A stretch of 64,000 bases of DNA from positions 17,911,027-17,975,026 of the forward strand of contig NC_134834.1 in assembly GCF_004210375.1 (NCBI RefSeq). The letters run 5' to 3'. The stretch is from Tachypleus tridentatus (Eukaryota; Arthropoda; Merostomata; Xiphosura; Limulidae). Below are positions 17,686 to 63,602 of this stretch, one piece after another. The translations under genes and the position numbers were made by a program. The notes beneath the pieces are model-generated. The model had not been told where the DNA came from, ran no database searches, and worked only from the letters and a program-made list of their open reading frames with translations. How positions within the stretch are numbered: position 1 is the stretch's first letter; the number at the start of each line of letters is the position of its first letter.

Positions 17686-18115
17686 AGCAACGGACGACGT
17701 TTCAGTGTCCTCGCTGAGGCAGATGCAGTCTATCGACTATTTAGACTCCAATAGATACAGTAATGTTCACTGGAATATAGAAACGGATGACTCTTGATGA
17801 CGCGAAACCCAATTTCTTCACCTGAAGATGACCTAGGAAGGTCGAAACGTTGTTCTCTCCTTATCAATAAAAGTATTAATACTCATACCAACCGTTCTAA
17901 GATACAAAAATGGATGACGTTTCGGTTTCAATGCTGAGGAAAGTATAGTAGATAACTGTTGAATTTCTAATAAATACAATACTGTTGACTGGCTTGTAGG
18001 AATGAACGACGTTTCGGTTTCCCTGCCAAGGTAGATATAATCTGTAAACATTGATATTGTAATAATACACAATATTGTTAACTGGCGTGTAGGAACGGTC
18101 GACGTGTTGAGTTTG
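17686..18115. repeat. Degenerate ~90-bp tandem repeat, interrupted
   Basis: Four or so diverged units each contain GGA(C/T)GACGTTTC(A/G)GT, then a GCTGAGG-like block, then AATACAATACTGTTGACTGG. Units lie near 17690, 17910, 18000 and 18090. The first two are separated by ~110 bp that contain the hammerhead-like sequence at 17815. Confidence 0.6.
17815..17860 (+). ncRNA. Hammerhead-ribozyme-like motif
   Basis: CTGAAGA (CUGANGA box) is followed by a stem TGACC-TAGGA-AGGTC and then GAAACGTTG, the order and spacing of a hammerhead core with a minimal stem III. Pairing for stem I is poor, so activity is doubtful. It resembles the copies at 44.7 and 63.5 kb in stem II and the GAAACGTTGTTC block. 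Confidence 0.45.
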
Positions 18116-44315: not shown

Positions 44316-44327
44316 ATATTTTATTGG

Positions 44328-44479
44328 TCAGTGATGACGAGAAACCCACTTGTTGAGAAATTTATATGCAAAAACGGCTCGTTTGGGCTGAGAAAACACT
44401 TTACATAGAAGAGCGAACAACGTTTCGACCTTCTATGTAAAGTGTTTTCTCAGCCCAAACGAGCCGTTTTTGCATATAA
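44328..44479 (-). mobile_element. Small palindromic hammerhead-bearing retroelement with 12-bp target duplication
   Basis: ATATTTTATTGG flanks the element at 44316-44327 and 44480-44491. Inside, 44361-44411 and 44430-44480 are perfect 51-bp inverted arms around an 18-nt loop; the right arm's last base coincides with the first base of the right-hand duplication. On the minus strand the loop and left arm read GGTCGAAACGTTGTTCGCTC, the 3' half of a hammerhead core. The left side keeps a 3' tail (TTTCTCAACAAGTGGG ... CATCACTGA on the minus strand) that is also at the right end of the element at 63 kb. Confidence 0.75.
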
Positions 44480-44647
44480 ATATTTTATTGGATATTAAAA
44501 TACTTCTCTAGAAAATTATATATTAAGTATTATAAAATATTGGAGACTCCATGACCTAAAAATCTTTCAAATAAACATTTTGAAGTATCGATGTAATTGT
44601 TTTAATAAAAAGCACTGATTTATTTTGAAACATTACAAAGCTTAATT

Positions 44648-44760
44648 TTTATATGCAAAAACGGCTCGTCTGGGTTGAGAAAATATTTTACATAGAAGAG
44701 CGAACAACGTTTCGACCTTCTTCGGTCATCGTCAGGTTCACATCCAGTCTTATTTGTTAT
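44648..44760 (-). mobile_element. Single-arm copy of the hammerhead-bearing element
   Basis: Same sequence as one arm of the neighbouring palindrome (TATATGCAAAAACGGCTCG, TTTACATAGAAGAGCG), continuing through a complete hammerhead-like core. Its right limit is unclear, no target duplication was found, and the CATCACTGA tail is absent. Confidence 0.65.
44700..44741 (-). ncRNA. Hammerhead ribozyme-like motif, complete core
   Basis: On the minus strand: GTGAAC (stem I), CTGACGA (CUGANGA box), stem II GACC-GAAGAA-GGTC, GAAAC, GTT, then GTTCGC, which pairs with GTGAAC over 6 bp (one G-U). Stem III is only the self-complementary ACGU, so cleavage would favour a dimer, as reported for Penelope-like element hammerheads. 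Predicted from sequence only. Confidence 0.65.
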
Positions 44761-62600: not shown

Positions 62601-62893
62601 TGTGTGATGAATTTGTTATTGAGAAATTTGATTTCAGAAAATAATCTCTACAAAAACACTTATGAAATTTTTATTTCTCCCCCAACCCCCAAATGCAACA
62701 TTAAAATACTTATACATAGGGTGAAGAACGACGTCAGCGACTGGATGAATCGTATTACTTGCATCATTTTCTGGCAGATTTCAGAGATCTTGTTTCTTGG
62801 ACTAATGACATGAAAGGTATCATCCTGGCCGATGAACTTGCTAAAGATGTAGCTGGGGCTGAAGTACTACTGGAGAGACACCAAGAACACAGG
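50445..62893 (+). CDS. SPTAN1: Spectrin alpha chain, non-erythroid type, N-terminal part (9 exons; gene continues past window)
   Basis: Alpha-spectrin pairs with beta-spectrin to make the actin-linked membrane skeleton. Nine exons with GT/AG boundaries join in frame to 409 codons: 50445-50687, 53825-53950, 56331-56471, 59095-59178, 59458-59562, 60542-60633, 61676-61820, 62160-62276, 62720-62893. The product follows human SPTAN1 as I recall it from residue 1 (VEDIQMRREQVLNYY; DENYKDPTNLQ; RKHEGIERDLAALEDK; DELAKDVAGAEVLLERHQEH). Residues ~14-44 form the lone helix that completes a triple-helical bundle with beta-spectrin in tetramers. Spectrin repeats 1-3 and the start of 4 follow; their signature Trp residues fall at 61, 166, 272 and 378, spacing 105-106. 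ATG 50445 has a good context (G at -3 and +4); the frame is open further upstream, but that is not spectrin-like and an acceptor lies at 50437-50438. SH3, CCC and EF-hand regions lie beyond the window. No defect is seen. Confidence 0.95.
51284..51900. repeat. Minisatellite, exact 30-bp unit with 120-bp higher-order repeat, in spectrin intron 1
   Basis: About 20 copies of CAGTACCACCCATTTAATAA followed by CTGAGCAGTA or variants, with almost no length change. The four-unit block 51541-51660 recurs at 51661-51780 with only a few differences. Frames stay open on both strands as a by-product. Confidence 0.93.
52755..52852 (+). mobile_element. SINE family C
   Basis: CCAGTGGCACGTCTATGGAC, GGGTTTAGATACCCATGATG and GGGCAGAGCACAGATGACCC, ending in (CAA)n. 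The tail is shortened. Confidence 0.78.
53485..53753 (+). mobile_element. SINE family A with 11-bp target duplication
   Basis: Full-length copy in spectrin intron 1, 71 bp before exon 2, flanked by AATCACAAGTA at 53474-53484 and 53754-53764. Four bases are missing from the anticodon arm. Confidence 0.91.
53825..53950 (+). CDS. SPTAN1: Alpha-spectrin coding exon 2 (residues 82-123)
   Basis: AKIQKHQAFEAEVAAHGNAI to NHFASEIIK, repeat 1 helices B-C. Acceptor TTGTAG, donor AAG|GTAACC, phase 0. Confidence 0.93.
53951..56330 (+). other. Alpha-spectrin intron 2
   Basis: 2.4 kb, AT-rich, carrying a 240-bp piggyBac-like MITE. Nothing else is recognised; open frames at 55.3 and 56.1 kb show no domain. 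Confidence 0.8.
55126..55365. mobile_element. piggyBac-like MITE with TTAA target duplication
   Basis: TTAA lies on both sides (55122-55125, 55366-55369). The left end CCTGTTGACTGCC matches the right end CCTGCTCAGTGCC (minus strand) at 10 of 13. At 240 bp with no transposase frame it is non-autonomous. TTAA targets with CC... termini are characteristic of the piggyBac superfamily. Confidence 0.68.
56331..56471 (+). CDS. SPTAN1: Alpha-spectrin coding exon 3 (residues 124-170)
   Basis: KRLEELRALWELLLSKLSEK through FWISDK, joining repeats 1 and 2. Acceptor AATAG, donor AAA|GTAAGT, phase 0. Confidence 0.94.
56472..59094 (+). other. Alpha-spectrin intron 3
   Basis: 2.6 kb. The stretch 57480-58600 is less AT-rich than its surroundings and contains an eroded coding remnant on the minus strand. 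Confidence 0.8.
57755..58460 (-). pseudogene. Eroded coding remnant of unknown identity in a spectrin intron
   Basis: Minus-strand pieces in different frames look protein-like: a Cys-rich segment (CKCKVFMCGICGKCPRC) near 58300-58350, TSENSLDFVTQEMTHIVQ near 58110-58160, QQGTEMNSIQFGNSFKVNKL near 57990-58050, and KESDDTNLFSFANDVHHVLS near 57790-57850. Frames are interrupted by several shifts and stops. I do not recognise the family. It could be a dead transposon gene or a processed host pseudogene. Confidence 0.35.
59095..59178 (+). CDS. SPTAN1: Alpha-spectrin coding exon 4 (residues 171-198)
   Basis: EAFVTTEEFGLDLEHVQLLQ RKFDEFQK, the A-B region of repeat 2. Acceptor TTTGTAG, donor AAG|GTAACT, phase 0. 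Confidence 0.94.
59458..59562 (+). CDS. SPTAN1: Alpha-spectrin coding exon 5 (residues 199-233)
   Basis: DMASQEFRVSEVNELGDNLI to a Lys-rich end. Acceptor CAACAG, donor AAG|GTAAGT, phase 0. Confidence 0.93.
59563..60541 (+). other. Alpha-spectrin intron 5
   Basis: 979 bp, with a TG repeat near 59975 and a diverged family A SINE at 60105-60373. Confidence 0.8.
60105..60373 (+). mobile_element. SINE family A, strongly diverged
   Basis: CCTGGCATGGCCAATTTG head, ACACCAAACATGCTTGACC and AGTGCAGATAGCC tail remain. It is an old copy. Confidence 0.8.
60542..60633 (+). CDS. SPTAN1: Alpha-spectrin coding exon 6 (residues 234-264)
   Basis: ELHDAWQRLKALALLRQEKL FGAHEIQRFN plus two bases of the next Arg. 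Acceptor AATCAG, donor CAG|GTAATT, phase 2. Confidence 0.94.
60634..61675 (+). other. Alpha-spectrin intron 6
   Basis: 1.04 kb AT-rich intron. Complementary short open frames at 61.09-61.34 kb on both strands are incidental. Confidence 0.8.
61676..61820 (+). CDS. SPTAN1: Alpha-spectrin coding exon 7 (residues 264-312)
   Basis: The first base completes Arg264. DADETIAWITEKDLVLSSDD to AALEDK is the A-B part of repeat 3 and the segment closest to vertebrate alpha-II spectrin. Donor AAG|GTTTGT. Confidence 0.95.
62160..62276 (+). CDS. SPTAN1: Alpha-spectrin coding exon 8 (residues 313-351)
   Basis: VVTIGQEAEQLCANHEDHAD to WEMLKAK, repeat 3 helix C. Acceptor TCCAAG, donor AAG|GTATCA, phase 0. Confidence 0.9.
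62720..62893 (+). CDS. SPTAN1: Alpha-spectrin coding exon 9 (residues 352-409)
   Basis: GEERRQRLDESYYLHHFLAD to LLERHQEHR, the start of repeat 4. Acceptor ACATAG, donor AGG|GTAATT, phase 0. No tenth exon is visible before the window ends, so intron 9 is at least 1.1 kb. Confidence 0.94.
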
Positions 62894-63045
62894 GTAATTT
62901 AAAATATTGGTTTAACTTAGGCCTAAATGCATTTTCTGACACTAGCACCATTAAAATTTACTGATATCTTTTATTTGTTTATTTTATCTTGAAAAATGAG
63001 TTAACTAATAGGTTTTTTGGGAAAACATAAAGTATTCACTTTTGT

Positions 63046-63589
63046 ATGCAAAAAATGGCTCGTTTGGGTTGAGAAAATATTTTACATAGAAGAGCGAACA
63101 ACGTTTGACCTTCTTTGGTCATCGTCAGGTTCACAAAGAAAGAGGTAACTGACCGGAAGCTGACCACATGTTTGAAAGGGGTTGTGTAACTGTGTGTCGA
63201 AATGTAGAGGGCGGTATTAGATGTTTGAATATATAATTTTATTTATTATATTAATATAGGTTATAAAGGCGTTCCTTTATATTGGTTTATTTTGGGTTTA
63301 AGTTGTTGTATAAGTAAGGCTTCTTTAATTTTGCATTTGTTTATGTTTGTTTCTTTATTTAGTATTTGAGTGTTTTCTATGGTTATGTTGTTATTTCGAC
63401 ACACAGTTACACAACCCCTTTCAAACATGTGGTCAGCTTCCGGTCAGTTACCTCTTTCTTTGTGAACCTGACGATGACCGAAGAAGGTCAAACCTTGTAC
63501 GCTCTTCTATGTAAAATATTTTCTCAACCCAAACGAGCTGTTTTTTGCATATAAATTTCTCAACAAGTGGGTTTCTCGACATCACTGAT
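63046..63589 (+). mobile_element. Hammerhead-bearing inverted-repeat retroelement with 13-bp target duplication
   Basis: Perfect TATTCACTTTTGT flanks the element (63033-63045, 63590-63602). Arms 63046-63203 and 63393-63550 are near-identical inverted repeats of 158 bp around a 189-bp AT-rich centre. A 39-bp tail ending CATCACTGAT is present only at the right. Each arm, read outward, contains GTGAACCTGACGATGACC and GGTCAAAC, a hammerhead-type order whose core departs from consensus in both arms. There is no reverse transcriptase, so it is non-autonomous. It lies in spectrin intron 9. A relationship to Penelope-like elements is inferred from the ribozyme-like sequence. Confidence 0.75.
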
Positions 63590-63602
63590 TATTCACTTTT
63601 GT

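What the first reader, a model, noticed from the sequence alone, without database searches (positions are those of the whole stretch)
63033..63602. Small inverted-repeat retroelement carrying outward-facing hammerhead-like sequences, inserted as one unit
Two 158-bp arms in inverted orientation, a 189-bp non-coding centre and a tail on only one side are enclosed by a perfect 13-bp duplication (TATTCACTTTTGT). The duplication shows that the whole palindrome-like structure was inserted together, not assembled later. Penelope-like elements are known to carry hammerhead motifs in their terminal repeats, but a ~540-bp non-autonomous unit made of two opposed ribozyme-bearing arms is not a type I know.
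Basis: partly seen in the sequence, partly recalled or inferred. Interest (0 to 1): 0.78.

Follow-up and report, generated by a model that had tools for sequence, protein, structure and literature searches.

The report
Truncated, double-sided Penelope retrotransposon insertion
The palindrome is not a new kind of mini-element: it is a broken copy of a Penelope-type jumping gene, probably in a horseshoe crab, and copies like it record how the element seems to be copied into both cut ends of its target.

Summary
The structure is real: 158-163 bp inverted arms (96% complementary), a 34-nt tail on one side, an exact 13-bp target-site duplication. It is not a new class of retroelement. The arms are pseudo-LTRs (pLTRs) of a Penelope-like element (PLE). 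The "non-coding" centre is the 3' end of the PLE ORF on the minus strand. The head-to-head junction was found once in the genome, so nothing indicates that the unit spreads as such.

The pLTR end has 10,865 near-exact matches. Among the first 100 exact ones, close neighbours face outward in 24 of 26 cases and are convergent in 0. Of 29 loci with two arms in hand, 24 have a duplication of 12-16 bp by script (18 exactly 13) and two more by reading; all 26 carry a tail on exactly one arm. Nicks favour N^GTT.

Best explanation: both target strands are cut 13 nt apart, each 3' end primes a cDNA, one from the tail site and one from the inner site, and the two truncated cDNAs are joined. Inverted pLTRs, tails and two start sites are published; the strictness of the one-tail rule I did not see in what I could read.

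The parts
63033..63045 (.). target-site duplication, left copy TATTCACTTTTGT
   Evidence: exact 13-bp direct repeat with 63590-63602
63046..63203 (-). left arm: PLE pLTR, tail-less 3' end (cDNA presumably primed by the plus-strand 3' end at 63045)
   Evidence: 96.3% identical to the right arm; alignment ends at pLTR position 163
63096..63132 (-). hammerhead-like core GAAC-CTGACGA-TGACC..GGTC-AAAC-GTT-GTTC, one base shorter than the common GGTC-GAAAC form
   Evidence: motif assignment and coordinates by eye, no Rfam match
63204..63391 (-). 3' end of the PLE ORF (C-terminus of the presumed endonuclease region), frameshifted near its end
   Evidence: translation; nearly the same reading ends the ORF in L026
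63392..63392 (.). head-to-head junction (one base between the two truncated cDNAs)
   Evidence: pattern across it found once in the genome
63393..63555 (+). right arm: PLE pLTR
63464..63500 (+). hammerhead-like core, further degenerate (GGTC-AAACCTTGTAC)
   Evidence: coordinates by eye
63556..63589 (+). PLE tail (34 nt), present on this arm only
   Evidence: aligned to tails of other loci
63590..63602 (.). target-site duplication, right copy TATTCACTTTTGT, followed by GTT

Best explanation
This is one 5'-truncated, double-sided insertion of a Penelope-like element, 140 bp downstream of an alpha-spectrin-like exon, presumably in an intron. Most likely course: a PLE protein, probably a dimer, nicked both strands of the target 13 nt apart, leaving 3' overhangs. 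Each 3' end primed reverse transcription of PLE RNA, probably from one source. One cDNA began at the outer (tail) start site, the other about 34 nt further in. The minus-oriented cDNA ran through the pLTR into the end of the ORF; the plus-oriented one stopped at the pLTR edge. The two free cDNA ends were joined head to head, and gap filling gave the 13-bp duplication. Shown here: anatomy, duplication, one-tail pattern, nick preference, greater likeness of arms within a pair. Inferred: dimer, endonuclease type, bilateral priming, one RNA source, end joining.
For: Arms, centre and tail are PLE parts: L026 and L028 hold a ~2.85-kb pLTR-ORF-pLTR partial tandem; the ORF of L026, in three pieces, has a reverse transcriptase (RVT_1, 44.6 bits, cut-off 29.6) and by eye a GIY..YIG-like motif (IIYKIQC..FYIGET). 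Genome-wide, 10,865 matches to the pLTR 3' end with <= 3 mismatches, reversed control 0. Among the first 100 exact ones, 26 neighbours lie within 4 kb: 24 outward, 0 convergent, 1 of each tandem type. In those 24 an exact-match tail is on one arm in 19, both in 0, neither in 5; reading the 5 showed one slightly changed tail in each, 4 of the 5 with a 12-14 bp duplication. In 67 loci examined (this one included), 29 have two arms in hand; 24 of 29 have a duplication of 12-16 bp by script, 18 exactly 13, L014 has 13 bp by reading and L044 14 bp with one mismatch; all 26 have exactly one tail. 36 nick positions (18 loci): G at +1 in 24, T at +2 in 24, T at +3 in 27, GTT in 12 against a 2.1% background rate. 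Arms of one pair are closer to each other than reassigned arms in 22 testable pairs (0 of 5000 shuffles as low), and 6 of 25 pairs share variants seen in at most one other arm. Published in vitro work on the anole PLE: both strands cut and extended, two adjacent internal start sites that bound the tail (PMC11167929, parts 1 and 2 of 4 read).
Against: The GIY-YIG endonuclease is not confirmed by any profile or PDB sequence search. The in vitro paper saw no difference in start site between strands, which does not predict a strict one-tail rule. 3 of the 29 paired loci have no duplication and break the rule: in L027 (two tails) the left pLTR is followed by more ORF, so it is internal; L048 (no tail) and L057 (two tails) are palindromes with mirrored host flanks (100% over 47 and 37 bp). 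10 of the 24 script-found pairs came from a query that contained the tail, so had at least one tail by selection. In 19 of the 24 list-based pairs the absence of a second tail rests on an exact pattern that missed altered tails in 5 other pairs. One of the 24 list-based pairs (C1:2784201) is also L056. Likeness of arms within a pair could partly reflect subfamilies or age. No allele without the insert was found (0 matches), so the empty site is untested.
Confidence: 0.8

Rival explanations
1. A distinct small non-autonomous retroelement family made of two opposed ribozyme arms around a fixed centre.
For: Outward-facing pLTR pairs are common, and many are compact (11 of 24 listed pairs have pattern starts within 140 bp).
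Against: The junction was found once; the junction points differ among the paired loci tabulated, and the centres are pieces of the PLE ORF; the compact pairs L080 and window 44328-44481 have other junctions.
Confidence: 0.03
2. Self-priming: one cDNA (or an antisense template) folds back at its end and copies itself, which gives the inverted arms; this was the reading favoured for Adineta vaga Penelope elements (PMC3846280, section 11).
For: Arms of a pair are more alike than reassigned arms. L048 and L057 are palindromes including host flanks with the same tail state on both arms, as fold-back copying would give. Short inverted pieces at some 5' ends, e.g. L036 and L037.
Against: Fold-back copying should give both arms the same outer end; instead one arm ends at the tail site and the other at the inner site in all 26 duplication-bearing pairs. 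Fold-back does not by itself make a 13-bp duplication with similar nick motifs on both sides.
Confidence: 0.12
3. Two separate PLE insertions, or recombination between neighbouring copies, that happened to end up head to head.
For: The genome is full of copies.
Against: One duplication of 12-16 bp encloses both arms at 24 of 29 loci by script; orientation of close neighbours is 24 outward to 0 convergent.
Confidence: 0.02
4. LINE-like twin priming on a single RNA: the second target strand primes within the same RNA, giving a 5' inversion.
For: Also uses both target strands and inverts one part.
Against: Twin priming (recalled, LINE-1) inverts adjacent, non-overlapping segments; here both arms contain the same pLTR segment, so the region was copied twice. 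A tandem RNA with two pLTRs would reconcile the two.
Confidence: 0.06

Closest known systems
Penelope elements of Adineta vaga with inverted pLTRs (Pen2a_Av; PMC3846280, sections 6 and 11 read)
   Same: direct and inverted pLTRs, head-to-head arrangement, 31-bp tail optionally on one of the inverted pLTRs, 9-bp target-site duplication
   Different: there the ORF is 842 aa with one stop; here the copy is cut to the last ~190 bp of the ORF, and this family's duplication is mostly 13 bp in the loci examined
Poseidon PLE of Anolis carolinensis (PAc; PMC11167929, parts 1-2 of 4 read)
   Same: pLTR with minimal hammerhead, tail bounded by two internal start sites, both target strands cut and extended in vitro
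   Different: cut preference reported as ATT there, N^GTT inferred here; no difference of start sites between strands reported there
Metazoan non-LTR retrozymes (PMC7229834, passages read)
   Same: small, non-autonomous, hammerhead sequences, low GC
   Different: retrozymes are tandem repeats with canonical type I hammerheads; this is an inverted pair derived from a protein-coding PLE

Membership tests
Penelope-like elements (Penelope/Poseidon type) | telomerase-like reverse transcriptase in the parent ORF | tested here: met
   a reverse transcriptase is there: RVT_1 44.6 bits against a cut-off of 29.6 in L026:1382-2872; that it is of the PLE or telomerase-like type was not tested by phylogeny
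Penelope-like elements (Penelope/Poseidon type) | C-terminal GIY-YIG endonuclease | tested here: inconclusive
   motif by eye (IIYKIQC..FYIGET); no Pfam, NCBIfam or PDB sequence match
Penelope-like elements (Penelope/Poseidon type) | pLTRs formed by partial tandem copies | tested here: met
   pLTR-ORF-pLTR with 2.85-kb spacing in L026 and L028
Penelope-like elements (Penelope/Poseidon type) | optional 30-40 bp tail at the 3' end of a pLTR | tested here: met
   34-nt tail, present on one and absent on the other end of pairs; in L014 and L038 it runs on by about 20 and 7 nt
Penelope-like elements (Penelope/Poseidon type) | minimal hammerhead in the pLTR | tested here: inconclusive
   GAAC-CTGACGA..GGTC-GAAAC-GTT-GTTC in most copies by eye; no Rfam match
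Retrozymes | head-to-tail tandem repeats with canonical hammerheads | tested here: not met
   arms inverted, core one base short in both arms
Foldback/MITE DNA transposons | one unit with fixed termini and fixed internal junction recurring at many sites | tested here: not met
   junction found once; the two ends differ by the tail
Twin-primed LINE insertion | inversion of adjacent non-overlapping segments of one LINE copy | tested here: not met
   both arms hold the same pLTR segment

The most novel reading that the evidence does not exclude
PLE integration is bilateral and strictly asymmetric: in one event the two subunits of the integration complex start reverse transcription at two different positions of RNA from one source, one per target strand, so every double-sided insertion carries exactly one tail. 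The tail would then be the trace of which strand was served by which start, not an optional extension.
Probability: 0.5. Interest if true: 0.55.

Novelty: new member of a known kind. Interest (0 to 1): 0.3.

Why it matters
As an object the element is ordinary. Its family is useful because the genome holds some ten thousand pLTR ends, many in compact pairs. That makes an open question about PLEs (how the second side is made, and why some ends have a tail) testable by counting, and it gives a prediction for the in vitro system: start-site choice should be coupled between the two strands.

Tried and rejected
Rfam with gathering thresholds over the whole window (0 matches), E <= 10 on the locus and E <= 5 on 12 loci: no hammerhead; the microRNA-like matches in L048 and L010 are below their gathering scores. 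Pfam, NCBIfam and PDB sequence searches for the endonuclease: nothing usable. PDB search with the reverse transcriptase piece: 0 matches. Empty-site search: 0 matches, uninformative if the assembly holds one allele. Whether the tail arm is the longer one: 16 longer and 8 shorter among the 24 script-found pairs; chains there are approximate, so no claim is made. A fresh tail-blind sample of 20 loci was wanted from the list; 3 were fetched, one of them (L080) chosen because the list showed it paired: it is a compact pair with one tail and a 13-15 bp duplication. L081 shows one arm only; L082 has an inverted ORF piece at its 5' side, the partner end lies outside.

It was therefore also left out by mistake.

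Papers: eight searches. Craig et al. 2021 (msab225) is not held; Arkhipova 2006 and Evgen'ev and Arkhipova 2005 were seen only as references. So I cannot say that the one-tail rule is unpublished.

Rows dropped before counts: one of two rows for L003 (a second fragment; it was still in the 870 null pairings). In the motif count only pairs with an exactly 13-bp repeat by script were used (18 of 29). 38 of 67 loci have no pair with both ends in the stretch held; 16 of these show an inverted PLE piece near the 5' end, and L004 is a single copy with a 16-19 bp repeat at its ends.

Full report
What is there. The described structure is in the sequence: inverted arms 63041-63203 / 63393-63555 (163 nt, 96% complementary, 189 nt apart), an exact 13-bp direct repeat at 63033-63045 and 63590-63602, and a 34-nt tail on the right. 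Flanks taken from different rows gave 13 bp in 1 of 870 pairings; random positions in this repeat-rich window gave 12 bp or more in 14 of 2,000 placements.

What it is made of. The centre is the end of a protein-coding frame on the minus strand (NITIENTQILNKETNINKCKIKEALLIQQLKPKINQYKGTPL, then a frameshift). Nearly the same reading ends the ORF of longer copies (L002, L007, L026). In L026 the unit is pLTR-ORF-pLTR with 2.85-kb spacing; its ORF, broken into three pieces, holds a reverse transcriptase (RVT_1, E 1.7e-11) and, by eye, a GIY-YIG-like motif that no profile search confirmed. With tail, partial tandems and minimal hammerhead-like cores this is a Penelope-like element. The host is probably a horseshoe crab: Coagulin (PF02035) gives 19 matches here and none in 14 control genomes; that this family is typical of horseshoe crabs is recalled. 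The insertion lies 140 bp downstream of a stretch (62723-62893) that matches erythrocytic alpha-spectrin in the PDB (E 1.4e-40) and Pfam Spectrin just below its cut-off (27.4 bits against 29.9); that this is an intron is inferred.

Is it a unit? Nothing says so. The junction-spanning pattern occurs once with up to 3 mismatches, and of 40 scored places for a 120-bp junction query only this locus aligns over both halves. With the whole element as query, 40 candidates were scored of 2,902 first-look places; apart from this locus the best matches cover one arm plus the ORF end, not the whole.

What other copies look like. The pLTR 3' end occurs 10,865 times with up to 3 mismatches, reversed control 0. 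The first 100 exact places (0-83.7 Mb of one contig) contain 26 neighbours within 4 kb: 24 outward, 1 and 1 tandem, 0 convergent. This list was not chosen by tails. An exact tail lies on one arm in 19 of 24, both in 0, none in 5 (a fraction 0.0018 of 100,000 label shuffles reach 19). Reading those 5 showed one slightly altered tail in each; 4 have a 12-14 bp duplication, the fifth runs on into the ORF. If all 24 are taken as one-tail, random assignment of 24 tails to 48 arms gives 5e-7; but the 19 rest on an exact pattern for the tail-less arm.

Aligned pairs. In 67 loci examined, this one included, 29 have two arms in the stretch held. By script 24 of 29 have a duplication of 12-16 bp, 18 of them exactly 13; all 24 have one tail. 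By reading, L014 has a 13-bp duplication and one tail that is about 20 nt longer than usual, and L044 a 14-bp duplication with one mismatch and one tail. 10 of the 24 came from a query containing the tail and so had at least one tail by selection; 14 came from the searches, whose matches did not depend on it in the same way (the query contained the tail, but its best matches stop before it). The remaining three loci have no duplication: in L027 (two tails) one pLTR is internal, and L048 (no tail) and L057 (two tails) are palindromes with mirrored host flanks.

Geometry. With the duplication as 3' overhangs, the left arm begins as cDNA on the plus-strand 3' end and the right arm as cDNA on the minus-strand 3' end, which would explain why the 3' ends of both arms point outward (inference). 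Of 36 nick positions in 18 loci, 24 have G at +1, 24 T at +2, 27 T at +3, 12 GTT (background 2.1%). In this window the two nicks read CTT and GTT. Arms of a pair are more alike than reassigned arms (mean difference 2.9% against 4.1%, 0 of 5000 shuffles as low; 22 testable pairs), and 6 of 25 pairs share variants seen in at most one other arm. This suggests one RNA source for both; subfamilies and age may contribute. In the window pair taken alone the arms differ by 3.2%, unremarkable (42% of its between-locus comparisons are as low).

Hammerheads. 52 of 82 distinct pLTR rows keep GGTC-GAAACGTT; both window arms have GGTC-AAAC and the right arm more changes. They are probably inactive. Activity was not tested; in the published anole system hammerhead mutants did not affect insertion in vitro (PMC11167929).

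Comparison with print. PMC3846280 (sections 6 and 11 read, other passages by search) describes inverted pLTRs, a tail optionally on one of them, duplications and mostly head-to-head arrangements, and proposes self-priming. PMC11167929 (parts 1-2 of 4 read) shows cutting and extension of both strands and two internal start sites bounding the tail. PMC8969392 (passages) mentions inverted pLTRs and short 3' extensions as known peculiarities. So the architecture is known. The counted one-tail rule with a mostly 13-bp duplication was not seen in what I could read (search listings), and the main reviews were not read.

Verdict. An ordinary, truncated, double-sided PLE insertion, correctly seen but over-interpreted as a new type. 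The family-wide regularity deserves more interest than the locus.

Noticed in passing
window 44316-44491: A second compact head-to-head pair of the same PLE: tail on the left (44328-44434), tail-less on the right (44430-44481), 12-bp duplication ATATTTTATTGG.
   Followed up: yes
window 44648-44742: Tail-less pLTR fragment of the same family; no end repeat longer than 4 bp found.
   Followed up: partly
window 17820-17859: A diverged hammerhead-like stretch (CCTGAAGATGACC..GGTCGAAACGTTGTTC), 82% to the pLTR over 40 nt, perhaps of another PLE family.
   Followed up: no
window 1-64000: 67 inverted-repeat pairs of at least 60 nt within 5 kb; the 25 shown are 111-256 nt, probably dispersed repeats of other families.
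   Followed up: no
L048 and L057: Palindromes that include mirrored host flanks (100% over 47 and 37 bp) with equal tail state on both arms: fold-back copies, inverted duplications or assembly artefacts.
   Followed up: partly
L014: Tail arm runs about 20 nt past the usual tail end before a 13-bp duplication, so the outer start site is not entirely fixed.
   Followed up: partly
L008, minus strand: Fragments resembling a Tc1-type transposase beside the PLE copy, judged by eye from the translation.
   Followed up: no
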